The position numbers and the translations under genes were made by a program. From assembly GCA_026874595.1 (NCBI GenBank), contig CM049319.1, positions 64,968,417 through 65,032,416 of the forward strand: a stretch of DNA of 64,000 nucleotides. Direction: 5' to 3'. Of the stretch, positions 20,574 through 57,373 are shown piece after piece; within the stretch, counting starts at the first letter, position 1, and each line of letters opens with the position of its first letter. The DNA comes from Sipunculus nudus. Taxonomy: Eukaryota; Annelida; Sipuncula; Golfingiida; Sipunculidae. Under the pieces are notes generated by a model. That model was not told where the DNA came from, did not search any database, and saw nothing but the letters and a program-made list of their open reading frames with translations.

Positions 20574-21153
20574 TGTAACAGGCCAGATTATTCCCCCTGC
20601 CCAGTTTATACCCGGGTATAAAACAGCCTAGGCTAGAATATACCCCGGGGTATATTCCGGCCTAGGCTATTTTATACCCCCCTAGGCCAGATTATACCCC
20701 GACATGCAATCAGCTAGGTTTCACTGTTATTTAATGTATAAAAGTTGATATAATAACAAATTTTAATGTTATCCATAAAATGATATAACCGATCTGGTTA
20801 AACACATGTACTCTCATGCATTATCAATTACAAACACACATCCAAGGGTCACACACATATTTATGTTATTGAATAGAAGCCTCGTTATTTTGAAATATTT
20901 TTTTTGTATTTATTGATACTATAAACTGAGAAAAACTGAAAAGGGGTCACGTGATGCGCTCATGGCGAGAAGGGGTCTTCATGTAGCTGCATTGATCTGG
21001 CCAGTTTTCGGCAGGATTTTATTGACGTATTAGAATAGAAATTGTCACAAGGGTGAGTAAAGTACGCATCTATACAGGAGTGCAAATGTTCGCTATTAAA
21101 ACTATAGAGAATTGTCATATTTTTGGAAAGACAATTAACTCTCAGCGCCAATC

Positions 21154-21858
21154 ATGGAATCTACACCTGTCCTGCCCGTGTTCATTATTGAAAGGGATAT
21201 TGTGTACTCACAAAGAAAGGATCTGACTCTGTTTAGAATGTCACAGGTCGTTGCGGATTGTGTGACATTTGAGTGCATTGAAGGGTGTCAAAAAATTGGT
21301 TCGCTGTGGAGAATCTATTTAAAGACTATTGAATCAAGAACAAAATTACTGTCTGAAGGCATAACCGTTGGATCTCAGTCTGTGAATGTGTATGACAAAA
21401 ATCCATTTGCTGTGGGGAATACAGACCAATCAAGAAACACAATTAAAGTTACAGTAAAAGACATCCCATTGTCCTATAGCAATAACGAGATCAGAGACAT
21501 GTTGGGGGAACTTGGTGCAGATCTGAATGGAAATATAAGAGACAATGATGGTAAACTCACATCAATCAAAAATGGGGACAGATTTGTGTATGTTTTTGAA
21601 AACTCCATTAAGGATAAACCACTCCCGAGAAAGGCACTGTGCGGCAGCTTCAAATGTAGAATTTTTCATAAACACCAGCCTGGCTTCGGAGATCAACCTC
21701 TGTGTAGAAACTGCAGACAACCAGGTCACTGGGCATCAAATTGTGAAAAACCTCAAGTCTGTGCAGTATGTAAATCTGAATCACATACTGAAGGGGCAAC
21801 AGAGTGTGAAGCCTTTGAGGATAATCACGACAGGGTCTCATCTGTCTATAATGCTTAA
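21154..21858 (+). CDS. LINE ORF1, N-terminal part: RNA-binding protein with CCHC knuckles
   Basis: 234 codons to a TAA. Residues about 95-170 look like a compact RNA-binding fold of the RRM type found in LINE ORF1 proteins (TIKVTVKDIPLSYSNNEIRD, then NGDRFVYVF). Residues 184-197 are a CCHC knuckle (C-x2-C-x4-H-x4-C, CRNCRQPGHWASNC), and residues 203-218 a looser second one (CAVC...H...C). The expected role is binding element RNA in the ribonucleoprotein. The TAA at 21856-21858 lies in the same frame as the NADAR domain that follows, so the original protein probably ran through to 22398 (415 codons) and this stop is likely a later mutation. The start is the first ATG after a leader of about 214 bp. 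Confidence 0.8.
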   Translation: MESTPVLPVFIIERDIVYSQRKDLTLFRMSQVVADCVTFECIEGCQKIGSLWRIYLKTIESRTKLLSEGITVGSQSVNVYDKNPFAVGNTDQSRNTIKVTVKDIPLSYSNNEIRDMLGELGADLNGNIRDNDGKLTSIKNGDRFVYVFENSIKDKPLPRKALCGSFKCRIFHKHQPGFGDQPLCRNCRQPGHWASNCEKPQVCAVCKSESHTEGATECEAFEDNHDRVSSVYNA

Positions 21859-22398
21859 AGCCCGCTATCTGTGTTTCATTCGGAGGATTTCCCGGTCTTT
21901 GGGTTAGAGTTTGGGTCTGTTGAGCAGGCCTTTCAATACACAAGGGCGATTAGATCCGGGAGACTGGATATTTCTACAAAAATAAAAGAGGCCACAAAAC
22001 CTTCTGATATAAAGAGCTTGTCCGCTAAGGTTAAGTCCGATTCGGACTGGGAAGGCCAGAAAGGCAGGGTTATGAAAGAAATCCTGACTGCCAAGTTAAA
22101 CCAGAGTGAAGAATTTCGTAATGCACTACAAGAAAGTGAAACAAGAATTCTCATAAACCCAAAGATGAACGACCTATACTGGGGAACAGGACTGAATTAT
22201 GAAGTGACCGCAATCACCAAACCAAACCGATGGCCAGGGAAAAATGTCTACGGATCAATCCTTATGGCGCTACGAGATGATTTGCGTACAGAGGAGCCTG
22301 AGACTGTAAGTAAAAGAAAACAACCTCCACGGTCGAGTAGAGATAAATCGCCGAACATTCAAGCCTTCTTCCACAAAAAAACACCCAGAAAAAGATGA
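21859..22398 (+). CDS. NADAR (YbiA-like) domain at the C-terminus of LINE ORF1
   Basis: Same frame as ORF1, directly after its stop. The domain starts SPLSVFHSEDFPVFGLEFGS, followed by VEQAFQYTRA, then DWEGQKGRVMKEILTAKLNQ, DLYWGTGLN and finally WPGKNVYGSILMALRDDL. These are the landmark blocks of the NADAR family in the right order and spacing over about 145 residues; a basic tail follows. Family members hydrolyse N-glycosidic bonds: YbiA/RibX-type enzymes act on riboflavin-pathway intermediates, and NADAR proteins paired with DarT1 remove ADP-ribose from guanine. A conserved Glu usually found shortly before the WG block appears to be Asn here (RILINPK), so activity of this copy is doubtful. 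ORF2 begins on its stop codon (ATGA overlap). Residues 1-3 or so may include linker. Confidence 0.8.
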   Translation, partial: SPLSVFHSEDFPVFGLEFGSVEQAFQYTRAIRSGRLDISTKIKEATKPSDIKSLSAKVKSDSDWEGQKGRVMKEILTAKLNQSEEFRNALQESETRILINPKMNDLYWGTGLNYEVTAITKPNRWPGKNVYGSILMALRDDLRTEEPETVSKRKQPPRSSRDKSPNIQAFFHKKTPRKR

Positions 22399-23112
22399 GA
22401 ATGGGGCCTTTTATAAGATGTATGTCTTTTAACATACGAGGACTGAATGATTATATGAAAAGGAAAAAACTGTATCTGTGGATGAAAGATAATAATATAG
22501 ATATAACATTTTTACAAGAGACATTTTGTACCAAATCCAAAAAATATATATATAATTCTAGTTGGTATGGACAAATATTCCACTCTTGTAGTGAAAGTCA
22601 ACATAGCAGAGGTGTAGCTATAGCTTTGGGTAGGAATTTTGAATATAGTATAATTAATTCTGTTTGTGACAACGATGGTAGGCTTATTATGGTAAATTTA
22701 GAATTTAAAAATGAGAAATTGTCTTTAGTATCACTATATGCACCAAACGATGAAAACAGCAAATGCAATTTTTATAGGCACGCTCTTAAATGGATATTAC
22801 AACACACAGTAAACGAAAAAAATCTAATAATTGCTGGCGATTTTAATTGTCACTTACGTCAATGTGACAAAACTACTGATGGAGCAAAGAAAGATAAAAG
22901 TCATATTGAATTTCTTAATATTACCAGAAAGCTAGATCTACAAGATGCCTTTCAATTGAAACATGGTAAATTAGCAATAGATTTCTCATATGAGAGGGGT
23001 ACTGACTATAAAAGCAGATTAGATATTTTTATGAATTGAAGATTTTAAATAGTAGAATGTGTTCATAAATATTTAGTATCTGATCGTAGGACATCAAGTT
23101 TATCAGATCACA
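22395..23112 (+). pseudogene. LINE ORF2 N-terminus: APE-type endonuclease
   Basis: The ATG overlaps the ORF1 stop as ATGA. Endonuclease motifs appear in order: MSFNIRGLN (Asn), FLQETFC (catalytic Glu), SLYAPND, IIAGDFNCH (Asp/Asn) and KSRLDIF. The open frame then breaks at 23037-23039, and the last motif, LSDHKAV (Asp-His pair), lies at about 23098-23117 in another frame. A small frameshift near 23030-23040 is the simplest cause. The domain nicks target DNA for target-primed reverse transcription. Apart from the shift, the active-site residues look intact. Confidence 0.88.
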
Positions 23113-23123
23113 AAGCCGTTATA

Positions 23124-23622
23124 ATGAAATGTTGTATTTATCCATATAAAAGAGGACCCAACTACTGGAAATTAAATGCCATCTTGCTAAGAAATCCTAT
23201 TTATATTGAAGGTATGACAAAAATTTTAAGGGGAGAAAAGGAACAATATTTACAGAGTTCCTCAAAAATAAATTTTTGGGAAGAATCGAAAAGAAAAATT
23301 AAGCAATATTCTATAGAGTTTTCAATAGATATGTGTAAAGGAGACAGAAGTAAATTAAAACAATTAGAAAATCGGATCATGATCCTAAAAAAGTACAAAC
23401 GAAAATTTAAAAAATAAGATAAAGATTGAAAACTTGCAAAAAGAGATTGATGAAATATATGAATCAAGGGCTGCAGGTGCAAAAATCAGGTCTCGTGTAA
23501 AATGGTGGGAAGAAGGAGAGAAAAATTCTTCTTACTTTCTCAGACTGGAGACACAAAAACAAATGTCAAATGCAATTTATGAGCTTGAATTAAATGGAAA
23601 ATCATTTCTTAAAATGTATTGA
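23124..23622 (+). pseudogene. LINE ORF2 linker and pre-RT region, frameshifted
   Basis: It continues from the endonuclease with RGPNYWKLNAILLRN, typical of the linker behind the nuclease. A stop at 23415-23417 (after a lysine-rich stretch in an A-rich run) breaks the frame. The sequence then resumes in another frame from about 23417 with RVKWWEEGEKNSSYFLRLE, the conserved block just before the reverse transcriptase. RT motifs should start about 60-100 codons later but are absent. Confidence 0.8.
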
Positions 23623-23815
23623 AGAGAGTATATATTTTTTTATGTGGTCACTGTACAAGTTCAAAATCAAGTGTAAAATGAAAGATATCTATCCTTCTGC
23701 AGAGGGATTGATTGGATATATAAAGTATGATTTAAAAAGTTATCTAAACACAAGATTTGTAAAGAAGTATAAAGTAAAACAAGTGAAATTAGGCCAGCTG
23801 TTTGATATGTTGTAA
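23623..23815 (+). pseudogene. LINE ORF2 C-terminal scrap after RT deletion
   Basis: The frame reads FFMWSLYKFKIKCKMKDIYP and continues to a stop at 23815. It looks like the basic C-terminal end of an L1/Tx1-type ORF2. The junction with the pre-RT block lies near 23620-23645, so the whole polymerase palm and thumb are missing, probably about 2 kb judged from the usual ORF2 length. Confidence 0.65.
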
Positions 23816-23940
23816 AGATAAAGATATATTGCACACTGCATGTAAGTCATTATAAATATATGTTTGTCTATCCACTTCCTTTACCTGCCGGGGGAAGATT
23901 GGAGTATGGAAATGGCAGAATGGAAATGAATAAAGATATT

Positions 23941-23992
23941 AAAAAAAAAAAAAAAAACTCTGACCATGGCATATTTTTTCCTGTAAAAAAAA
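23941..23992 (+). other. Double poly-A tail with 27-bp insert (likely 3' transduction)
   Basis: Poly-A at 23941-23957 is followed by 27 unrelated bases (23958-23984) and then a second A run that abuts the 17-bp target duplication. This is the signature of a transcript that read past the source element's tail into its genomic flank. Confidence 0.65.
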
Positions 23993-24716
23993 AAACTGAG
24001 AAAAACTGATGTAAAATGTTTCCTTGCACATGGAATAATGACAGCAGACTGAGAGGATAATTCTCTATAATTATAATCTTCTTGAAATTATACGTATATG
24101 TATGTAGATATATGTTTTGATGCACTCTATTCATTTAGTATGTTTAATACCATAATGTATTAGTCAGATTACCAATCTCAGGAAGCCCCCCCCCCAACCC
24201 CACGATCCATCTCAGGGACCCCCCCCCCCCCCAGTACCCCCACCCCAAGGAAACCACCTCACAGAAACCTCCTAGAGAAACTCAAGCCTCAGAGAAGCCC
24301 CAAACAATCATTATATAATTATTACTTGTATGCATGAGATAATGCAGGCATAATGAAGTTATTTAGGTTCATACTAACATAAATGCCGCAAATAGAATTA
24401 ATCGCTCATAACACGGAAACGGAGTTTTAGGTATATTGTTAAAAAATAGTTCTTATTTTATCAGACACAATGACTAAGTCCATATAAAATTAACTATTGT
24501 GTTAAGCATAGCTGGTTTTTATTGATATATATAAAAGATATTAGAAGCAACAAGGGGGTATAATTCAGCCCAGAGGGGTATAAAATAGACTGGGCTAGAT
24601 TATACCCCGGGGTATAAAATAGCCTAGCCCGTTTTATACCCGGGGTATATTCTGGCCTAGGCCAGTTTATACCCGGGTATAGAATAAGGGGGGTTTATTC
24701 TGGCCTATTACACCGG

Positions 24717-35611: not shown

Positions 35612-36800
35612 TATCTCGGTTAATATTTATGTTTCAAGGGTCTAGTTTTTTGCATAAGGCTGCTTCCCCTTGGTTCTACGTCATTCAATTGCAAGTCTCG
35701 TCAAATTTCGCTCGGTTTATCGTCAAACGAGAAAAAACGAGATTTCACGGAAATGCTTATAACTCGGCGACTTTTACAGCTACACAGCTCTAGTTTTCGG
35801 CATTTCATAACATATGACCAGCTTGACACGCCAGAAAAAAAATCAGGCCAAATCTCGCACCATATCTCGTCCGGCGAGAAAAAAACGAGATATCATGGAA
35901 ATGCTTATAACTAGGCGACTTTTACAGCTACTCAGGTCTAGTTTTTGGCATTTGGTAACATTTGGCCAACTTGACATAGTAAAACTGCGATACTTGGCGA
36001 AATCTCGCACTATATCTGGTCAAATGTGGAAAAACGAGATTTCACAGAAATGCATATAAGTCGGCGACTTTCACGGCTAGACAGGTCTAGTTTTTGGCAT
36101 TCATTAACATTTGGACGGCTTGGCATGACAAACCTGCAAGACTGGCCAAATCTCGCACCATATCTCGTCAAACGATAAAAAAGGAGATTTCACAGAAATG
36201 CTAATAACTCGGCGACTTTTACAGCTAGACAGATGTAGTTTTCGCCATTTCATAACATTTAGACAATTTGATATGACAAATCTACAAGACTGGCCAAATC
36301 CTGCACCATATCTCGTCAAACGAGAAAACACGAGAGTACACGGAAATGCTTATAACTCGGCGACTTTTACAGCTAGACGGATCTAGTTTTCGCCATTTCG
36401 TAACGTTTGGCCGTCTTGACAAAATAAAACTGCTCGTCTTGCCAAATCTCGTACTGTATCTCGTCAAGCGAGAAAAAAACATGACTTCACGTAAATGCTG
36501 ATAACACGGCGACTTTTGCAGCTAGACAGGTCTAGTTTCCAGCATTTTGTAATATTTGACAAACCTGACATGACAAAACTGGGAATCTCACCAAACCTCG
36601 CACCATTTCCCGTCAAACGAGAAAACACGAGATTTCATGCAAATGCTTATAACTCAGCGGCTTTTATAGCTAGACAGGTCTAGTTTTCGGCATTTCATAT
36701 CATTTGGCCAGCTTGACATGACAAACATGAAAACGTCTCACTGCTTCTTGTCAAACGAGATTAACGGGATTTCATGAAAAAATTTTGAACTTGGTCCCTT
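35612..36800 (+). repeat. 148-bp tandem array
   Basis: The phrase AACTCGGCGACTTTTACAGC (with variants) starts at 35761, 35909, 36058, 36206, 36354, 36503 and 36651, i.e. steps of 148, 149, 148, 148, 149 and 148. Decayed units flank on both sides (near 35612 and 36790). Each unit also has a TCTCGTCAAACGAGA-type hairpin and CTAGTTTTCGGCATTTC. Confidence 0.9.
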
Positions 36801-37471: not shown

Positions 37472-37859
37472 AGGTCGAGGTCATCAAAAGTATACAAAAC
37501 GGGTTTTTCTTCATATCTTTGTATCTACTTGAACTATAGCTCATTTTAATCGTCATCAAATGGCCTTTCTTCTGGTGGGTACCTGACTCAAATTTTCCGT
37601 TTCCATGGTAACACATTTTGGGGAAAAATTATCATATTTGAAAATCAATGGACTAATTTGTCAGTTTTAATGCTAGAGAGGTCTAGTTTTTTTCCATTAG
37701 GTTGCATTTGTTTAATACTACATGATTTTATTAAAAGTCTGGCATTATCTCGTTAGATAGCTCATCAAACGAGATATTTCGAGATTTCATTAATCTTGCC
37801 CTGGAGGCCACAGTTTTGCAGGAATTTTTTTTAAAACTGATACATTTCAAGTCTTACCC

Positions 37860-40040
37860 TAGTATCTCGAATTTGTTTTTTCAATTTTTTGATAGGGCCA
37901 CTAGGGGGCGCTGGATGCGAACCTCCCCAACATATCATATTTTGGCCATATCTCCAAAATTATAAGCCTCAATTACATAAACTATAGCTTATTTTCTTTC
38001 TCTGAGTCTTCTCCATAACCTGGTGTAGTCAGCTGGTCACAATTTTGTGTCACTTTGTCAGTGTGTCTGTCTGTTTGTCAGTTGTCCTCAAATTCGCCTG
38101 CTTGCTCTTGCGTCTCACATATAGCATTCTACAGCCCCCAGTTTTGAAAGAATCCTTTTGAAACTATTACATCTTAAGTCTTACACTAATATCTCGAAAC
38201 CAATTTTTCATTTTCCGGATATGGCCGCTAGGGGGCGCTGAACTCGAACCTCTCCCAACATATCATGCTTTGGCAATATGTCCAAAACTATAAACCTCAG
38301 TTACATAAACTAGCTTTTTTCTTCCTTTGAGTCTTCTCCATAACCTGGAGTAGTCATCTGGACTCAATCTTGAGTCACTTTGTCAGTGTGTCTGTCTGTT
38401 TGTCAGTTGTCCTCAAATTCGCATGCTTGCTGGTTCTTGCGTCTCACATATAGCATTCTATAGGCCACAGTTTTGAGGGAATCCTTTTGAAACTATTACA
38501 CCTTATGTCTTACACTAATATCTCGAAATAAATTTTTCATTTTCCGGATATAGCCACTAGTGCGCGCTGCACACGACCCTTACACACATACCATTGTATT
38601 GGCCATATCTCTACACCCAAAGCCTCAGTTACATAAACTATAGCTTATTTTCTTCCTTTTAGTTTTCTCCATAACCTGATTAAGGCATCTGGTTTCAATC
38701 TTCTGTCACTTTGTCAGTGTGTCCATCTGTTTGTCCGTTATCCTCAAAGTCGCCTGCTTGCTGGTTCTTACGCCTTACATATAGCATTCTACAGGCCACA
38801 GCTTTGACGGAATCCTTTTGAAACTGGAACATCTCATGTCATACGCTAATAATACGAAACGCGTTTGTCGTTTTTGCAATATGTCCGCTAGAGGGCGCTA
38901 CAGTCGAACCTCCCAAGTATATCATTAATTCGCCATACCTCCAAAACTATTAATCTAAATTACATAAATTATAACTCATTTTCTTCCTTTGAATCTTCTC
39001 CATAACTAGGTTAAGTCATCTGGTGTCAATCTTGTCTCACAAAGTCAGTATGTCTGTCTGTTCGTCTTTTGTTGTCGGCTTTGTCTGCTTGCCTGTTCTT
39101 TTGTCTCATATGTCATTCTACGGGCCACATATTCTCAGCAATGGCCCTGAGAGTCATTCCATTGATAGAAAACCGACAAAATTTTCTGTCTGTCCGTCTG
39201 TGTTTCACTTCCGATTTCCGGCAAGCGTTCGACCTATGGTCGTCTAGTTTGTTTGTCAGTACTCTCCTGGCCACAATTTTGTAGCAACCAATCTGAAACT
39301 TTCAGGGTTGATTGAAAGTCAAAAGTCCTGGTAGCCTATGGTTTTAGGTAGGCATAAGTCAAAGGTCAAGGTCGAGGTCATCGAAAAACGTCGAAATTTT
39401 ATTTTCACCATAAATTTGTAACTATTGGCCCTATTGTCACAAACTTAGGCTCATTTTCTTCCTCTGTGTCTTCTTCATAACATGGTTTTGCCATCTTTGC
39501 TCAACTTTGTGTTACTTTGTCAGTATGTCTGTCTGTCTGTCAGTTGACCTCAATTTCAACTCCTTGCTGGTGCTTCTGTCTTACATATGCATTCTACAAG
39601 CCACAGTTTTGCAAGAATCCTTTCGAAATTGATGGATCTTATGTCTTACACTAATATCTCAAAATTGATTTATCATTTTCGGGATATGGCCGCTCGGGGG
39701 CGCTGCACTTAAACATCATCAATGTATAATTTTTTGACAATATCTCCGAAACTATACACCTTAATTACATACACTATAGCTTAATTTCCTCCCCTGAGTC
39801 TTCTCCATAACTTGGTTAAGTCACCTTGCCTCAGCTTTGTGTCCCTTTGACAGTATGTCTGTCTATCTGTCAGGTGTCATCAATTTCGCCCTCTTGCTTG
39901 TTCTTGTGTCCAACATATAGCATTCTACAGGCCACGGTTTTGCAGGAATGCTTTTGAAACTGATACATCTTATGTCTTACACTAATATCTTGAAAGTGAT
40001 TTCTCAGTTTCGGAAACTACCCGCTAGGGGGCGTTGCACA
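37860..40040 (+). repeat. ~328-bp tandem array
   Basis: The CTAGGGGG-type block falls at 37901, 38228, 38557, 38888, 39693 and 40024; neighbouring steps are 327, 329, 331 and 331 bp (one interval spans an inserted block at 39050-39400). Each unit reads: TATCTCGAAA, TTTTTCATTTTCCGGATATG, CTCF-like block, CTCCAAAACTAT, AAACTATAGCTTATTTTCTT, CACTTTGTCAGTGTGTCTGT, and CTGGTTCTTGCGTCTCACAT. Confidence 0.88.
37895..40036 (+). promoter_or_regulatory. Array of CTCF-like motifs, one per 328-bp unit
   Basis: GGGCCACTAGGGGGCGCTG (37895-37913), TGGCCGCTAGGGGGCGCTG (38222-38240), TGGCCGCTCGGGGGCGCTG (39687-39705) and TACCCGCTAGGGGGCGTTG (40018-40036), with decayed versions near 38557 and 38888. They all point the same way. 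The match to the CTCF consensus is by eye. Confidence 0.45.
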
Positions 40041-49134: not shown

Positions 49135-50325
49135 TTAGTGCTTCAATGACATCATCTGCTTGAAAGAAGAAAATGCCGTATTAACCAGTAATCTGAACCA
49201 GTCTGTACATTCTACGGGGGGATCTATGTCAAGAGGTTTGCCAAATAAGATGGCGGCAAGTTCAAGATCGGTTAAAGAGTTCAAAAAGGCAGATACATGA
49301 ACTGGTAAATAATCTACAATGAAAGACCATAGTGTTCCGCGGTCATCGTTACACGCCTGGCACACCGTTAAAACATGTAGTACTGAATTATAGTATAAGT
49401 GACCACAAAAGTGACAGAGTCTCTGAATTTCGGAGTTATATGATGCAAAATAAACGACAAGTTTAGCCAGTTTTAAGATATATAAAAATGACTCTGGAAA
49501 ATATCTCGCTGCGAGCCACATTACGCTTGGCTTCAAGTCAGGGTTAACTTCCCTTAATATGTAGAAATCGACCTGGTTTGCTATCCTATCTTTAAATCTT
49601 GCTATCTCGTAATTATGTATTACGTCATCTAAAATGGTTTTCCATAACCCTTTATTGGGGAAATAATCATCAGTAATATAACTAATCATATAGTCGTCTA
49701 AGCTATAAAGTTTCGATATAGTGATCACATCGTTTATGAACCCCTTATTTGGCACAGTATCAGAATAATAGCTAAAGATTCTGTGCCACAACACATTCCT
49801 GCAGAGGTCACCCACAGGAGCTCTACAGAGCCTACCCAAAAATTTTAACTTGTACATATTAATCGTACCCTGTAACCTATGAAGACCTAACATGGCCAAC
49901 GCAGTGTCAGATCGAACTCGTTGGTTAAAAGCTTGACAGGTCCGGGCACAAAATCTGTGCGTTCGCTCAAGTCTTAGGACTTCCATATTGGTAAGACTGT
50001 TCCATAATTCACAACCATACAAAAATGTTGGAATTACGATAACTTTGTACAACTTAGCAGCCGTGAGGGGATTAAGACCCCTTGGTCTTACTCCAGCACC
50101 CGCTAAGGATAGGAAGGATCCCCTCGCTCGTTGACAAGAAAGTTTAGTTCTCTGATGAGAATGGAAATTAGAATTAAGGAGAATACCAAGGTGACGATGT
50201 TCTTGCACTTGCTTGATTTTAGAATTACCCAGACGCCATGATCGAGATCCGACAAGCATTTTAAACCTTGTATCCGATTCACCAAACGCTATTACCACAG
50301 ATTTATTTGGGTTGAAATTAAACAT
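49135..50325 (-). pseudogene. LINE ORF2: RT thumb and C-terminal domain
   Basis: An open frame of 396 codons that begins in the palm's end (FNPNKSVVIAFG), then EHRHLGILLNSNF, the LG(I/V) block of LINE RT motif 7-8. A typical post-RT stretch follows (YKVIVIPTFLYGCELWN), and near the end a Cys/His cluster (CHFCGHLYYNSVLHVLTVCQ), which could bind zinc. Late RT blocks of this type help position template RNA. It is joined to the upstream RT block by a one-base frameshift near 50300-50340. Confidence 0.85.
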
Positions 50326-50990
50326 CCAGTTACAACAGATTCATAACAAATATTTAGCATACGCTGAAGGCCAAATGGCGTGAGAGATATCAGTGATATA
50401 TCATCAGCCATAATTTGAGACCCAATATATAAATTATCAATTTTCGCCCCATACAAACAGTTCCTAAGTTGTAAAATCAATTCATTTATGTAGACAACGT
50501 AAAACCAGGGGGAAAGTATGCCTCCCTGCCTGACCGATCGACACACTTTGAACCATCGACTGAAGACTCCGTCGTGTTGCGCACAACTTAAAATATCGCT
50601 GTACGAAGATTCCATCAACCTCCACAATTTCCCATTTATTTTAAGTTCAGAAATTTTAGTGAAGAGGCCGTCGTGCCAGACCGTGTCGAAAGCCTTGGAG
50701 CTGTTGAGAAATGCACCATAAACTATGGAATTCCTTTCTAGATTATGAAGAATACCCTCCTATAATACAAAGGAAGCATTAGTGGCCGAAAGCCCTTTTT
50801 GATAAGCAAACTGAAGTTTATCAGGAACTCCAAGACTAGTGACGTCAGAATAAGCAAGAATTCTGTTTAACATTACACGCTCTAACAACTTATAAATAGC
50901 AGGAATCAACGTAATGCCTCTATAATTATCGGGCGAAGAAGCACTTTTCCTGTTGTCCTTTAGCAAGGTAATAACTTTGCCCTTTTTCAT
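50292..50990 (-). pseudogene. LINE ORF2: reverse transcriptase core, one stop, motif A mutated
   Basis: Reading from 50990 down: KGKVITLLKD, then DNYRGITLIPAIYKLLERV (fingers), QFAYQKGLSATNA, and a TAG stop at 50757-50759 in the same frame. The frame then continues with FLNSSKAFDTVWH (motif A), VRQGGILSPWFYVVYINELI (motif B) and IMADDISLIS (motif C, Asp pair present). In motif A the position normally held by the first catalytic Asp is Asn (codon AAC, near 50708). The enzyme would copy RNA to DNA at a nick; this copy cannot, given the stop and the missing metal ligand. Confidence 0.85.
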
Positions 50991-51388
50991 TTCACAGGGA
51001 ATGTATTCAAAGGAAAAACATACATTAAAAAAGCCGTTAGGCAGCGGATTAAACTCGCACCCCCATACACAAGATGTTCATTAGTAATTGCATCATTTCC
51101 GCCCGCTTTTCTCAATGACAATGATCTCACTGCCCGGAAAACTTCAGTTTCGCTGAATGGGTCATCAAATAATTCATTATGATTCTTAAAAGATTCTGTG
51201 TAATATTTAGTCAGTTTTTGTTCGATAGCATTTTTATGATCTGCCCTGAAGGAACGCGATTCAGCATCAGAATACAGTTTCTCATAATAAGACGCCCAAC
51301 CATTTGCAATATTATGTGGGTCGAAACACTTTTTACCATCGAAAATCATGTGACTAAACTTAGACTTTTTAGCTCTTTTTCGCCGCAA
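50987..51388 (-). pseudogene. LINE ORF2: region before RT
   Basis: 133 codons containing WASYYEKLYSDAES and SETEVFRAVRSLSLRKAGGN then DAITNEHLVYGG, a standard block at the entry of LINE reverse transcriptases (KAxGxD...E). Offset in frame from both neighbours, so at least two indels bound it. Confidence 0.8.
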
Positions 51389-51920
51389 AAGGACCCAGAA
51401 TTATTTTAATATCGGCTTCCATAGTTTCATCGATTTCGTCAAACACAGATCTTTCTAACATATCGTAATAATTTCTAATCTTTTTGCGAAAAATTCGTTT
51501 AGCTTCTTTATACATCATAAAGGCGTTATCATTACCACGGGGTTTCCCCATCTGAAGCCATACCCTTCTGTATCTGAGCATATCATCATGTTCTTCTTTA
51601 AGGTATTCCTTCCATTTTGGTTTTTGGGGACCCACTGATTTTGAGTGGGGAATAGTTTGATGAGCGCAATTAATTAATGTACTAACAAGCTTTTTGTATA
51701 CTTCATCTATATCATGATAAGCGGTAGCTACATCTTTAGGAATGCAAATATGGCCCAAGGCATCTGCTAATACTTGTGTATACGTATTGTATATTCTAGT
51801 ATTAGACAGATTTTGCCATAAAAGTTTTCGATCCACATCGGTGTTTACATGTTGGTTTGTTAGCTTAACTTCAAGACTAACAATCTGAGCCAGATGGTCT
51901 GATGATCTGTGTTTTAACAT
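51369..51920 (-). pseudogene. LINE ORF2: linker upstream of RT, 5'-truncated
   Basis: The frame opens against the satellite (the first residues are satellite-derived, so the Met is not a true start). SSDHLAQI near its beginning is probably the last endonuclease motif (SDH). HQTIPHSKSVGPQKPKWKEY and YKEAKRIFRKKIRNYYD are the usual basic linker between nuclease and polymerase. The rest of the nuclease is missing, which fits 5' truncation on insertion. Confidence 0.78.
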
Positions 51921-53630
51921 TTATTAAAATGCCACAGTGGTATGGTTTACAAAAGTTGAAATGTCTGTAAATTATAACTGTTCTTAACGTGTCTCCATGT
52001 ACTACAAAAATAGCCATAATTTTTTTTTGACAATTTTTATTACAATAGGCAACGTTATAACAATAGCGGTTGGGTCCGAGTAACCCTACTGTAATAAAGT
52101 TCCATAATGTAATAACCACTTAATTACATGTGTCATTTACGGTATAAAATGTGTTTTAATATTTATTGAAATGCCAAAATTGTTTGATTTACAAATTGTA
52201 AAATGTCTATAAATTATAACTCTTCTTAATATGGATCCATGAACTACAAAAATATCCATAAGAATTTTCTATTAAAATTTTTTTATTACAATAGGCAACG
52301 TTATTACAATAGTGGTTGGGTCCGAGTAACCCCTATTGTAATAAAGTTCCTTAATGTAATTACCACTTAATTACATATGTCATTTGCGGTATAAAAGGTG
52401 TTTTAATCTGTATTAATGCCACAATTGTTTGGTTTACAATTACTAAAATGTCTGTAAATTATAACAGTTTTTAACGTGTCTCCATGAACTACAAAAGTAT
52501 CCATATGATTTTTCTATCTTAAATTTTTATTACAATAGTCAACGTTGTTACATTGTGGTTTGGTTCGAGAAACCCATATTTTAACAAAGGTTCCTTAATG
52601 TAATAAACACTTAATTACATATGTCATTTGCGGTATAAAAGGTGTTTTAATCTGTATTAATGCCACAATTGTTTGGTTTACAATTACTAAAATGTCTGTA
52701 AATTATAACTGTTCTTAACGTGTCTCCATGTACTACAAAAATAGCCATAATATTTTTTTGACAATTTTTATTACAATAGGCAACGTTATAACAATAGTGG
52801 TTGGGTCCGAGTAACCCTATTGTAATAAAGTTCCATAATGTAATAACCACTTAATTACTTGTGTCATTTACGGTATAAAATGTGTTTTAATATTTATTGA
52901 AATGCCAAAATTGTTTGATTTACAAATTGTAAAATGTCTATAAATTATAACTCTTCTTAATATGGATCCATGAACTACAAAAATATCCATAAGAATTTTC
53001 TATTATAATTTTTTCATTACAATAGGCAACGTTATTACAATAGTGGTTGGGTCCGAGTAACCCCTATTGTAATAAAGTTCCTTAATGTAATTACCACTTA
53101 ATTACATATGTCATTTGCGGTATAAAAGGTGTTTTAATCTGTATTAATGCCACAATTGTTTGGTTTACAATTACTAAAATGTCTGTAAATTATAACAGTT
53201 CTTAACGTGTCTCCATGAACTACAAAAGTATCCATAAGATTTTTCTATCTTAAATTTTTATTACAATAGTCAACGTTGTTACATTGTGGTTTGGTTCGAG
53301 TAATAAAGTTCCTTAATGTAATACACACTTAATTACATATGTCATTTACGGTAAAAAAGGTGTTTTAATATTTATTAAAATGCCACAGTTATATGGTTAA
53401 CAAAGGCTAAAATGTCTGTACATTATAACTATGCTTAATGTATCTCCATGTACTGCAAAAGTATTCATAACATTTTCCTGGCACAAATTTTTATTACAAT
53501 AGGCAACGTTATTACAACAGTGGTTGGGTCAGAGTATTGTATTAAAGTTACTTAATGTAATAACCACTTAATTACATATGTCATTTACGGTATAAAAGGT
53601 GTTTGATATTATATTATCTATGCTCTCTGT
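51905..53630 (+). repeat. ~240-bp satellite with 731-bp higher-order repeat
   Basis: The landmark (GGTTGGGTCC or its variants) falls at 52068, 52314, 52557, 52799, 53045, 53288 and 53522. Units 52068/52799, 52314/53045 and 52557/53288 pair up by sequence, each exactly 731 bp apart, so three unit types (246, 243 and 242 bp) repeat as a block. Each unit has a hairpin: TTATTACAATAG and CTATTGTAATAA around an inner GGTT...AACC. No coding capacity. Confidence 0.9.
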
Positions 53631-54672: not shown

Positions 54673-55608
54673 TCATAAACATCTCGATAAGCAATCAGCA
54701 AGTACATTATCTTTCCCTTGAATGTGTTTGATTTCAAGGTTGTAATCTTGTAAGAACAAGCTCCATCTCAACAATCTTTGATTTTTACACTTCAACTTGT
54801 TCATGAACGTGAGGGGATTGTGATCACTGAAGACAATGATAGGCTTGACTGATGAAGTAACATAAACTTCAAAATTTTGCAATGCCAAAATCAAAGCCAA
54901 ACATTCTTTTTCAATAATGGAGTAGTTTTTCTGGTTTGCATTAAACTTTCTTGAGAAATAACAAATTGAATGATCTATGCCATCATTGCCTTCTTGTAAC
55001 AACACAACACCAGCAGCAGTATCACTAGCATCTACAGCTAACTTAAAAGGTACCGAAAAGTCTGGAGCTACCAAAACTGGTGAACTTTGCAGAATTGCTT
55101 TCAAATTCTGAGATTGCATTTTCACACTGAACATTCCAACAAATTTTTTTTTCTTCTTTAACAAATTGGTCAAAGGTTCAGCTACAGCAGAAAAATTTCG
55201 ACAAAACTTCCTGTAGTATCTAACCGTACCAACAAATGGCATCATTTTCTTTTTGTTCTCTGGTCTAGGAAATGCAGAAATAGCATTCATCTTAGCATCA
55301 ACAGGTTTTACCTCACCCTGCCCTAAAATATGACCCAAAAATGTTACTTGTGCATGGCAAAACTCAGATTTAACTAAGTTGATAGTCAGACGTGCTTCAC
55401 TGAGTCTTTCGAAGAGGGCGCGAAGCATTTGCAGATGTTTCTCCAAGGTGTCGCTGTACACGATGAGGTAATCAATATATGCGTCGCAGCTCTGAAAGTC
55501 CTTGGTAACCATATGGATAAGGCGCTGGAACGTGGCTGGCGAGTTCTTCATGCCAAACGGCATAGCTTTATACTGGTACAGTCCTTGCGGCGTCATAAAT
55601 GCGGACAC
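54673..55608 (-). pseudogene. Reverse transcriptase palm and RNase H of the gypsy-type element
   Basis: The open frame starts inside RT (the Met is internal). KAMPFGMKNSPATFQRL is RT motif B. The active-site box reads AYIDYLIVYSD: the second Asp of the usual YIDD is Tyr (codon TAC near 55473), so the polymerase is dead. TFLGHILGQGEVKPVD and MMPFVGTVRYYRKFCRNFS are the following RT blocks. The RNase H domain begins near VPFKLAVDASDTAAGVVLLQ and continues through NYSIIEKECLALILALQNFE and VFSDHNPLTF to LADCLSRCL, where pol ends. It ends only about 130 bp before the LTR, confirming that nothing follows RNase H. Confidence 0.88.
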
Positions 55609-55675
55609 TTCTTTCGCTCGTTCTGTCAGCGGAACTTGCCAGAATCCTTTTTACAAGTCAAATTTGGAAAACAAG

Positions 55676-56002
55676 TCAAAATCTGGAGCTACCCAGTCTA
55701 TCAATACAATCATCGATCCTCGGAATCGGGAACGTGTCACTCTTGCTGAAAGAGTTCAGTTTTCGATAATCTGTGCACATACGGTAACTTCCATCAGGTT
55801 TTGGCACAAGAATACATGGTGAACTCCAGTTACTGTTACTAGATTCAATAAAATCATTGTCCAGCAAATATTGAATCTCATCCTGTAGATACTTTTGCTT
55901 TTCTGGATTCAGTCTATAAGGATGCTGCTTGACTGCGCTTGCCTCGCCAGGATCGAAGTCATGGCACAATATGTTAGTTTGCGTTGGAATGTCACTTAAC
56001 AA
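55676..56002 (-). pseudogene. Reverse transcriptase N-terminal part
   Basis: HPYRLNPEKQKYLQDEIQYL, then DFIESSNSNWSSPCILVPKP, then YRMCTDYRKLNS: the fingers of a Ty3/gypsy RT. Motif A (KFDL) lies in the gap at 55609-55675 in another frame, followed by an in-frame TAA near 55640, so a frameshift and a stop separate this from the palm. Confidence 0.85.
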
Positions 56003-56229
56003 ATGCTCATAATTACGCAGCAGGTTCTTGAGGTCTTCTTGTTGTTGTGCGATAAGGTGTGACAGTTTGGCATCAGGTTGTTAAGCACGTCTGAATTTTG
56101 TAATTGTACTGTACCACACTGAATGTCTACATCACACTTACAATCAGTATCTACTTTAACTGGGCCAGGATCAGTGTCCACACAATTTACAGCAGTGATA
56201 ATATGTACAACATCTGATGTGTTATTTCT

Positions 56230-56345
56230 GTCATAATATGGTTTCAACATGTTAACATGGTACAGTTGTTTCTTCTTACGCCTATCTGGTGTCAACAGTA
56301 TGTAATTTAAATCACTGAATTTCTTGTCAACAATGTAAGGACCAA
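56230..56345 (-). pseudogene. GPY/F module at the integrase C-terminus
   Basis: YFGPYIVDKKFSDLNYILLT and then KKKQLYHVNMLKPYYDR: the C-terminal DNA-binding module found after chromodomain-less gypsy integrases. Its place directly before RT proves that the integrase is complete at this end and not displaced. Confidence 0.75.
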
Positions 56346-57274
56346 AATACCTTGCTTGCAGAGGTCTGCCAGGGATAGGAAGTAAGGCTCAAACGTCCTA
56401 CTTACAGTGTGCTTGTCATACTTTGTTTTCCTTTTACTTTGTGCAGATTTTAGATTTGACTTTGCAATCTCACAAGCATTGTGTAGTTTAGTGCGAAAGT
56501 CTGAGACATACTGCAGTAAACTAAGAGACTCGGGATATTCACAAAAGCGGTTTTCTTTAAGCAGTTTTAATGGTCCTCGAACTGAGTGTCCAAAAGCTAG
56601 TTCAAAGGGACTGAAAGGATTCTTGAAAGGATACTCTGACAACAAAGAGCAATAGGTGGATTCCTTCATCACAGTCTTTCTGTGTGTCATAGCAATAGGT
56701 CCTTATCATGTTTTTTAATGTCTGGTGAAAACGCTCGAGGGCGCCCTGACTTTCGGGATAGTATGGCGAAGAGCTGTCCTGTTTTAAACCTAGCTCAAGC
56801 ATAACTTGCTTGAAAAAGCCAGACATAAAATCAGACCCTTGGTCAGACTGAACGGATTTTGGTAATCCAAACGTTGTAAAAAAACTTGGTCAGAGCTTTG
56901 ACAACACTTTTGGCATTAATTTTGCGCAATGGTATTGCCTTAGGGAACCTGGTAGATGCGCACATAATTTGCAGCAAGTATTCATGTCCAGATTTTGTTT
57001 TGGGCAGTGGTCCAACACAATCAACAATAATCCTACTGAATAGTATCTCGAAAGCAGGAAAAGGCCTAAGTGGGGCCTTAGGAGGATTCTGATTGGTCTT
57101 GCCTACCATCTGGCATGTATGGCATGATTTACAATATTGTACAACATTTTTCCTGAGGTTAGGCAAATAGAAGTGTATACTTACTTTCTGATAAGTTTTA
57201 TTTTTACCTAAATGACCAGACATAGAAGCCTCATGTGCCATGCTTAGAATTTCATTGCGAAGGCTTTTGGGCAT
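56307..57274 (-). pseudogene. Integrase of the gypsy-type element
   Basis: It starts with an HHCC zinc module (HEASMSGHLGKNK, then CKSCHTC) at 57240-57100. The catalytic core shows IIVDCVGPLP (first Asp), SDQGSDF (second Asp, near 56835) and YYPESQGALERFHQTLK (Glu, near 56745). A one-base shift in an A run near 56880 splits the first Asp from the second. A further shift near 56640 separates the core from PFSPFELAFGHSVRGPLKLL. It joins DNA ends to the genome in active relatives; here the frame is broken twice. The residues themselves look conserved. Confidence 0.85.
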
Positions 57275-57373
57275 TACTATTTGATGTTTGATGGCACACT
57301 CATCAGCAGCACATACATCAGGTGGTCGCCATTTTTAACATAGAAACAAACTGGATTCTGTGATATTTCATCT

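What the first reader, a model, noticed from the sequence alone, without database searches (positions are those of the whole stretch)
21859..22398. A NADAR (YbiA-like) glycosidase domain built into a LINE ORF1
The domain lies in the same frame as the zinc-knuckle part of ORF1, ends exactly where ORF2 begins (ATGA overlap), and sits between the element's two target-site copies. It is therefore part of the retrotransposon, not a captured neighbour. I know of no standard LINE architecture with a NADAR domain. If other copies in the genome keep it intact, it is a new accessory enzyme for a selfish element.
Basis: partly seen in the sequence, partly recalled or inferred. Interest (0 to 1): 0.88.

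Follow-up and report, generated by a model that had tools for sequence, protein, structure and literature searches.

The report
NADAR domain in a LINE's ORF1
A broken copy of a jumping gene (a LINE retrotransposon) carries, as part of its RNA-binding protein, a domain related to enzymes that remove ADP-ribose from guanine bases; the fusion is real and shared by many relatives and has been briefly reported in oysters, but in this branch the active site looks altered.

Summary
A NADAR domain (Pfam 1.2e-27) lies in frame with a zinc-knuckle ORF1, between 17-nt target-site copies, and ends in an ATGA overlap with ORF2. The copy is dead: a TAA cuts ORF1 at the domain's edge; ORF2 is broken and lacks its RT. 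It is not a one-off: open ORF1-NADAR proteins of 428-435 aa exist, and 25 of 62 ORF1 relatives carry NADAR. One gain in the zinc-knuckle family is not rejected. Two L1-type ORF1 proteins also carry NADAR, one probably from a separate capture. The architecture is not new: PMC12477816 reports NADAR in ORF1 of Crassostrea gigas Tx1 LINEs.

My additions: a model of ORF1 as RRM-RRM-CCHC-CCHC-NADAR-tail; loss of the last-strand catalytic acid in the window's clade (0 of 7), while 17 of 17 other zinc-knuckle LINE NADARs keep E, D or H (two one residue off); Lys to Arg at the phosphate site (7 of 7); a PIP-like tail motif. Best reading: the wider family may erase guanine ADP-ribosylation; this clade more likely binds or is weakened. 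Same-genome copies and dN/dS could not be tested.

The parts
20923..20939 (+). left target-site duplication AAACTGAGAAAAACTGA
   Evidence: exact 17-nt direct repeat
20940..23992 (+). internally deleted, dead LINE copy of the L1/Tx1 kind
   Evidence: lies between the TSDs; ORF1, EN, poly(A) signal and A-tracts
21154..21855 (+). ORF1, part before the premature stop (234 aa)
   Evidence: zf-CCHC 1.6e-5; aligns with P0003 and P0004 along its length
21169..21411 (+). RRM1-like domain, coordinates transferred from P0003 residues 6-86
   Evidence: AlphaFold model of P0003 and VIA-align
21436..21675 (+). RRM2-like domain, coordinates transferred from P0003 residues 95-179; the window copy has a 5-residue gap here
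21703..21807 (+). two CCHC zinc knuckles
   Evidence: Pfam zf-CCHC at residues 184-197; profile of relatives matches nucleocapsid knuckles at 4.9e-5; second knuckle by its Cys/His pattern
21856..21858 (+). premature in-frame TAA stop near the N-terminal edge of the NADAR fold; the relatives aligned are open here
21823..22296 (+). NADAR domain (interrupted by the TAA)
22348..22371 (+). PIP-like motif SPNIQAFF in the ORF1 C-terminal tail (lacks the canonical Gln)
   Evidence: [IV]xxFF seen in 7 of 7 window-clade members; functional role inferred
22396..22398 (+). ORF1 stop TGA, overlapping the ORF2 ATG at 22395 (ATGA)
   Evidence: sequence
22395..23036 (+). ORF2 endonuclease (APE/L1 type), cut by TGA at 23037
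   Evidence: PF03372 2.7e-9; best named solved matches are LINE-1 endonucleases
23049..23414 (+). ORF2 continuation after further stops; holds SDH, a motif of such endonucleases (recalled)
   Evidence: same frame as EN; no Pfam match of its own
23415..23815 (+). frameshifted ORF2 remnants by my reading; no reverse transcriptase domain seen
   Evidence: three-frame reading
23929..23957 (+). AATAAA signal and first A-tract
23958..23992 (+). 27 extra bases and most of a second A-tract, possible 3' transduction
   Evidence: sequence
23993..24009 (+). right target-site duplication

Best explanation
SHOWN: this is a dead, internally deleted copy of an L1/Tx1-group LINE. Its ORF1 protein family has two RRM-like folds, two CCHC zinc knuckles, a C-terminal NADAR domain and a flexible tail. 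NADAR is shared by many, though not all, related ORF1 proteins. INFERRED: ORF1 protein coats the element's RNA and carries NADAR to the ribonucleoprotein and the integration site. In the wider family, where E43 and an acid or His at E125 are kept, it may remove ADP-ribose from guanines of the element's RNA or cDNA placed there by host or foreign ADP-ribosyltransferases (clams make a guanine-specific DNA ADP-ribosyltransferase, CARP-1). In the window's clade the last-strand acid is lost and the phosphate Lys is Arg, while several ADP-ribose contacts remain. So here the domain more likely binds ADP-ribose or modified nucleic acid, or acts weakly or differently, than works as a standard hydrolase.
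Against: No biochemistry. 23 of 46 labelled rows in the ORF1 tree lack NADAR, so it is not essential across the family. In 7 of the 17 other zinc-knuckle LINE NADARs the K50 position is M, Q or H, so even the wider family is not uniformly canonical. The relatives were seen as proteins only, without their DNA or ORF2, so that they are LINE ORF1s rests on their likeness to the window's ORF1. K95R of E. coli C7 NADAR keeps in-vitro activity, which weakens the Arg argument. E88A has only a minor in-vitro effect. R79 is Ala and G78 Ser in the window, and Y84 and D86 have no clear match, so binding may be impaired too.
Confidence: 0.5

Rival explanations
1. The window-clade NADAR is still an active guanine-ADPr hydrolase, and its substitutions (last-strand acid to N/S/T/F, K50 to R) are compensated.
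For: E43 is present in 6 of 7 clade members (P0006 has a gap there); W89, D130 and W133 in 7 of 7; for the window against P0003, P0004 and P0005 the domain is conserved about as well as the ORF1 core; K95R keeps in-vitro activity.
Against: D171A and D171N of E. coli C7 lose efficient activity. In the residue context shown no acid lies between -4 and +3 of that site in the clade; P0004 has one at +4.
Confidence: 0.2
2. NADAR has become a purely structural or nucleic-acid-binding part of ORF1 with no ADP-ribose function.
For: Last-strand acid lost in 7 of 7; R79 and G78 changed; related ORF1s live without the domain.
Against: E43 (6 of 7), W89, D130 and W133 (7 of 7) are still conserved, which a mere scaffold might not need.
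Confidence: 0.25
3. One-off insertion or captured neighbouring gene, or chance similarity.
For: An in-frame stop separates it from the rest of ORF1 in this copy.
Against: Open fused relatives, 25 of 62 with NADAR, position inside the TSDs and joined to ORF2 by ATGA.
Confidence: 0.01
4. The domain acts on small ADP-ribose derivatives or metabolites rather than on nucleic acids.
For: This use is proposed for phage NADARs in PMC9503650 (passages).
Against: It is fused to an RNA-binding protein, which argues for a nucleic-acid-linked substrate (inference); the same paper favours macromolecular targets for NADARs of eukaryotic RNA viruses.
Confidence: 0.05

Closest known systems
Tx1 LINE families of Crassostrea gigas with NADAR in ORF1 (PMC12477816, passages read)
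   Same: NADAR domain in the ORF1 protein of an L1/Tx1-group LINE.
   Different: In the passages I read the oyster elements get a short mention and a supplementary alignment that I did not see. Whether its sequences are the window's clade is not tested. Those passages do not mention active-site loss or a second ORF1 type.
[quoted passage not shown]
   Same: A retrotransposon that carries NADAR.
   Different: LTR element; the domain is in Pol, and the paper suggests possible horizontal acquisition (blastp hits almost exclusively bacterial outside Ectocarpus).
Phytophthora nicotianae NADAR, PDB 8bau, and E. coli YbiA, PDB 2b3w
   Different: The solved chains are 189 and 168 residues, with no room for RRMs and knuckles; 8bau keeps E43, K50 and E125, and the window has E, R, N.
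Human LINE-1 ORF1p and the ORF2p PIP box
   Same: P0056 and P0060 combine an L1-like ORF1p core with NADAR. The ORF2p PIP box binds PCNA (PMC10830420 passages).
   Different: The window's ORF1 is the RRM-RRM-CCHC kind, and its PIP-like motif lies in ORF1 and lacks the Gln.

Membership tests
NADAR superfamily (PF08719) | profile match above the curated cut-off | tested here: met
   97.6 bits against 35.1
NADAR superfamily (PF08719) | YbiA fold | tested here: met
YbiA subfamily / active guanine-ADPr hydrolase | E43 equivalent | tested here: met
   E in the window
YbiA subfamily / active guanine-ADPr hydrolase | Glu (or Asp/His in other subfamilies) at the E125 position of the last strand | tested here: not met
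   Asn in the window; S, S, S, T, T, F in its six relatives
YbiA subfamily / active guanine-ADPr hydrolase | Lys at K50 | tested here: not met
   Arg in 7 of 7 clade members; K95R of C7 NADAR is active in vitro but does not rescue from DarT1
L1/Tx1-group LINE | APE-type endonuclease nearest to L1 | tested here: met
   best solved chains are 2v0r (LTX, 7.7e-17) and 2v0s (LR1), recalled as L1 endonuclease variants, then chains named LINE-1 from 3.9e-16; AP endonucleases from 2.5e-07
L1/Tx1-group LINE | TSD and poly(A) end | tested here: met
   17-nt TSD, AATAAA and A-tracts
L1/Tx1-group LINE | reverse transcriptase phylogeny | not testable with these tools
   no RT domain is left in this copy and other copies could not be fetched
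RRM-RRM-CCHC (type I) ORF1 protein; type name recalled | RRM folds plus CCHC knuckles | tested here: met
   knuckle in the window; RRM folds on P0003; profile of 24 sequences (knuckles 4.9e-5, RRM only 0.02)
Canonical PIP box (QxxPsixx-aromatic-aromatic; motif recalled) | Gln at position 1 | tested here: not met
   the window has SPNIQAFF; PCNA binding not testable here

The most novel reading that the evidence does not exclude
Invertebrate hosts restrict LINEs by ADP-ribosylating guanines in their RNA or cDNA, and LINEs answered by capturing NADAR at least twice, into RRM-CCHC-type and L1-type ORF1 proteins. The window's clade then turned the eraser into a reader or decoy that is tethered near PCNA by its tail.
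Probability: 0.12. Interest if true: 0.85.

Novelty: new member of a known kind. Interest (0 to 1): 0.5.

Why it matters
A selfish element that keeps an ADP-ribose-processing domain inside its RNA-binding protein suggests that nucleic-acid ADP-ribosylation bears on retrotransposition. This is testable with known enzymes: guanine ADP-ribosyltransferases exist in clams and NADARs reverse their kind of mark. The pattern of catalytic residues across the family (last-strand acid or His kept in the other lineages seen, lost in this one) tells experimenters which copies to test as enzymes and which as readers.

Tried and rejected
One-off insertion or chance: rejected by the fused relatives.

Other copies in the window: none found (tblastn E up to 0.01 and blastn E up to 1e-5). 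Copies in the same genome, copy number and dN/dS: not done; the genome search returned 'busy or cannot be reached' in 13 calls, so the genome was never reached.

Relatives in prokaryotic genome contigs: 65 pattern matches, none confirmed. Viral contigs: 147 pattern matches, 2 loci, both remote NADARs inside large proteins, not LINEs. Rfam on the window: 0 matches at gathering scores. Pfam on the N-terminal pieces of P0056 and P0060 up to E 10: coiled-coil-like weak matches only, no named LINE family; P0060's piece alone matched LINE-1 ORF1P only at E 0.14; the two-sequence profile gave 7e-6.

PIP box: the canonical form is not met in the window's clade. Strict motifs occur in 2 of 24 NADAR+ tails and 6 of 21 NADAR- tails (0.04 expected in each set), and the aromatic-pair form in 10 of 24 (0.28 expected) and 0 of 21 (0.08 expected). 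The patterns were chosen after seeing the tails and the sequences are related, so the numbers overstate. Two rows, P0005 and P0060, were dropped there for short tails (a cutting fault for P0005, whose tail holds the motif by eye).

Independent capture in P0056: not shown (AU p 0.454; P0060 alone p 0.023; both together p 0.055; the groups were named after the tree was seen). NADAR as one clade on the ORF1 tree: neither rejected (p 0.397) nor shown (2 changes on the best tree, 1 in 24% of bootstrap trees).

Rows left out: from the ORF1 tree P0001, P0007, P0016, P0043, P0047 and P0054-P0063, 15 of 63, for being fragments or another ORF1 type; P0006 from the NADAR tree for its gap. P0021 and P0044 carried no label in the tree. 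P0018 was labelled NADAR+ by eye from a truncated domain without a Pfam call; NADAR- rows were labelled by the absence of a precomputed PF08719.

Full report
What is there. The frame 21859-22398 carries a NADAR domain (PF08719, E 1.2e-27). It is in frame with an upstream CCHC-containing ORF1 (21154-21858) but separated from it by one TAA. The frame ends at TGA 22396-22398, which overlaps an ATG in frame with an endonuclease of the L1 type. An exact 17-nt repeat flanks the element at 20923-20939 and 23993-24009. The 3' end has AATAAA, an A-tract, 27 further bases and a second A-tract before the right repeat, as after a 3' transduction (inference). ORF2 is broken by TGA 23037, TAA 23046 and TAA 23415 and, by my reading of three frames, by frame changes; no reverse transcriptase domain is left. 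So this copy is dead. It is the only copy found in the window.

It is not a one-off. A NADAR-only search found P0001, and a search with the read-through ORF1 added P0003 (431 aa) and P0004 (428 aa), both open from the N-terminus to the tail. A profile search found 62 proteins. 25 of the 62 carry a precomputed PF08719, and Pfam finds NADAR in 24 of 24 members of alignment A2, which is 23 of these plus the window. Across the 10 pairs of P0002-P0006, identity is 55-66% in the ORF1 core and 50-62% in NADAR; for the window against P0003, P0004 and P0005 it is 58-60% and 58-59%. The domain is thus held about as tightly as the RNA-binding part, a little less in pairs with P0006. The clusters P0003, P0004, P0007 and P0001 stand for 5, 11, 7 and 6 member sequences. 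I saw these relatives as proteins only, not the DNA around them.

History. On a tree of the ORF1 core (48 rows: 23 with NADAR, 23 without, 2 unlabelled) the NADAR label needs 2 changes, or 1 in 24% of bootstrap trees; holding the NADAR+ rows together is not rejected (AU p 0.397). The window groups with P0003-P0006 (100/99). On a NADAR tree of 31 rows the 23 zinc-knuckle LINE NADARs lie on one side of a branch (88/93). Two hits, P0056 and P0060, have a different ORF1: a profile of the pair matches LINE-1 ORF1P structures at 7e-6 and NADAR at 2.9e-21. P0060's NADAR groups with phage NADARs (100/99), and joining it to the zinc-knuckle set is rejected at p 0.023; P0056 is unresolved (p 0.454); both joined together give p 0.055. 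So one old capture, or few, in the zinc-knuckle family and probably at least one more in L1-type ORF1. No cellular animal NADARs were in the tree, so the donor is open.

Active site. Positions were mapped to P. nicotianae E43, K50 and E125; the 8bau chain numbering is two higher. The window's clade (7 sequences) keeps E43 in 6 (P0006 has a gap) and W89, D130 and W133 in 7 of 7. K50 is Arg in 7 of 7, and E125 is N/S/S/S/T/T/F, acidic in 0 of 7. Of 17 other zinc-knuckle LINE NADARs, 15 have E (13), D (1) or H (1) in that column, and P0012 and P0013 have E one residue on, an alignment shift. K50 there is K in 9, R in 1, M in 5, Q in 1, H in 1. In PMC11543638 (section 12 read) D171A and D171N, the E125 equivalent, lose efficient hydrolysis; K95R keeps in-vitro activity but not rescue; E88A has a minor effect in vitro. 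The label 'glycosidase' is therefore doubtful for the window's clade, though not excluded.

Tail. The 7 window-clade members end in a tail with [IV]xxFF. Related tails hold strict QxxPsixx-aromatic motifs in 2 of 24 NADAR+ and 6 of 21 NADAR- proteins (0.04 expected in each set), and the aromatic-pair form in 10 of 24 and 0 of 21. The patterns were chosen after looking, and the window lacks the Gln, so this is a lead only. Human L1 ORF2p has a PIP box, and its PCNA interaction is required for retrotransposition (PMC10830420 passages).

How it may work. ORF1 protein would bring NADAR to the element RNA (inference from the RRM and CCHC domains). NADARs reverse guanosine ADP-ribosylation on DNA and RNA (PMC11125620 and PMC11833690 passages), and guanine-specific DNA ADP-ribosyltransferase activity is found in six edible clams (PMC11209040 passages). 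PMC9503650 (passages) proposes that RNA-virus NADARs counter host ADP-ribosylation. I think erasure is the likely ancestral role and that the window's clade now binds or acts weakly; none of this was tested.

What is known. PMC12477816 (passages) states that ORF1 proteins from several C. gigas Tx1 LINE families appear to contain YbiA-family NADAR domains, besides Ectocarpus Gypsy elements, and suggests a role in processing RNA intermediates. So the architecture is in print. My other searches for NADAR with LINE, ORF1, Tx1, retrotransposon, retroelement or mollusc terms showed no other report in their listings, most of them capped (20 of 104, 13 of 13, 20 of 16,795, 15 of 5,957, 10 of 1,119). 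Two mollusc LINE papers, PMC11203168 and PMC10294476, hold the word NADAR 0 times. A search for PIP box with ORF1 (12 of 57 listed) showed no title on a PIP box in ORF1.

Limits. The window's genome was never reached, so copy number, same-genome open copies and dN/dS are open. The organism is not established here.

Noticed in passing
window 20611-20700 and 24555-24644: The LINE is nested between inverted arms of 90 nt (83% complementary) built of TATACCCC/CCTAGG-rich palindromic units.
   Followed up: partly
window 23941-23995: Two A-tracts with 27 bases between them before the right TSD, suggesting a 3' transduction.
   Followed up: no
window 49135-51920, minus strand: Broken reverse transcriptase ORF (RVT_1 1.7e-11 at 50292-50756) with flanking long ORFs that have no Pfam match; the label CR1-like LINE is recalled, not tested.
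   Followed up: partly
window 54673-57334, minus strand: Gypsy-like Pol (label recalled): RT, RNase H and integrase zinc-binding domains.
   Followed up: partly
P0056 and P0060 (unnamed sources): L1-type ORF1 proteins with a C-terminal NADAR; P0060's NADAR groups with phage NADARs.
   Followed up: yes
ORF1 tails of NADAR+ and NADAR- relatives: PIP-box-like motifs are more frequent than in shuffled tails.
   Followed up: partly
window 35720-36733, 37805-39129 and 51909-53604: Large tandem arrays with periods of about 148, 331 and 245 nt.
   Followed up: no
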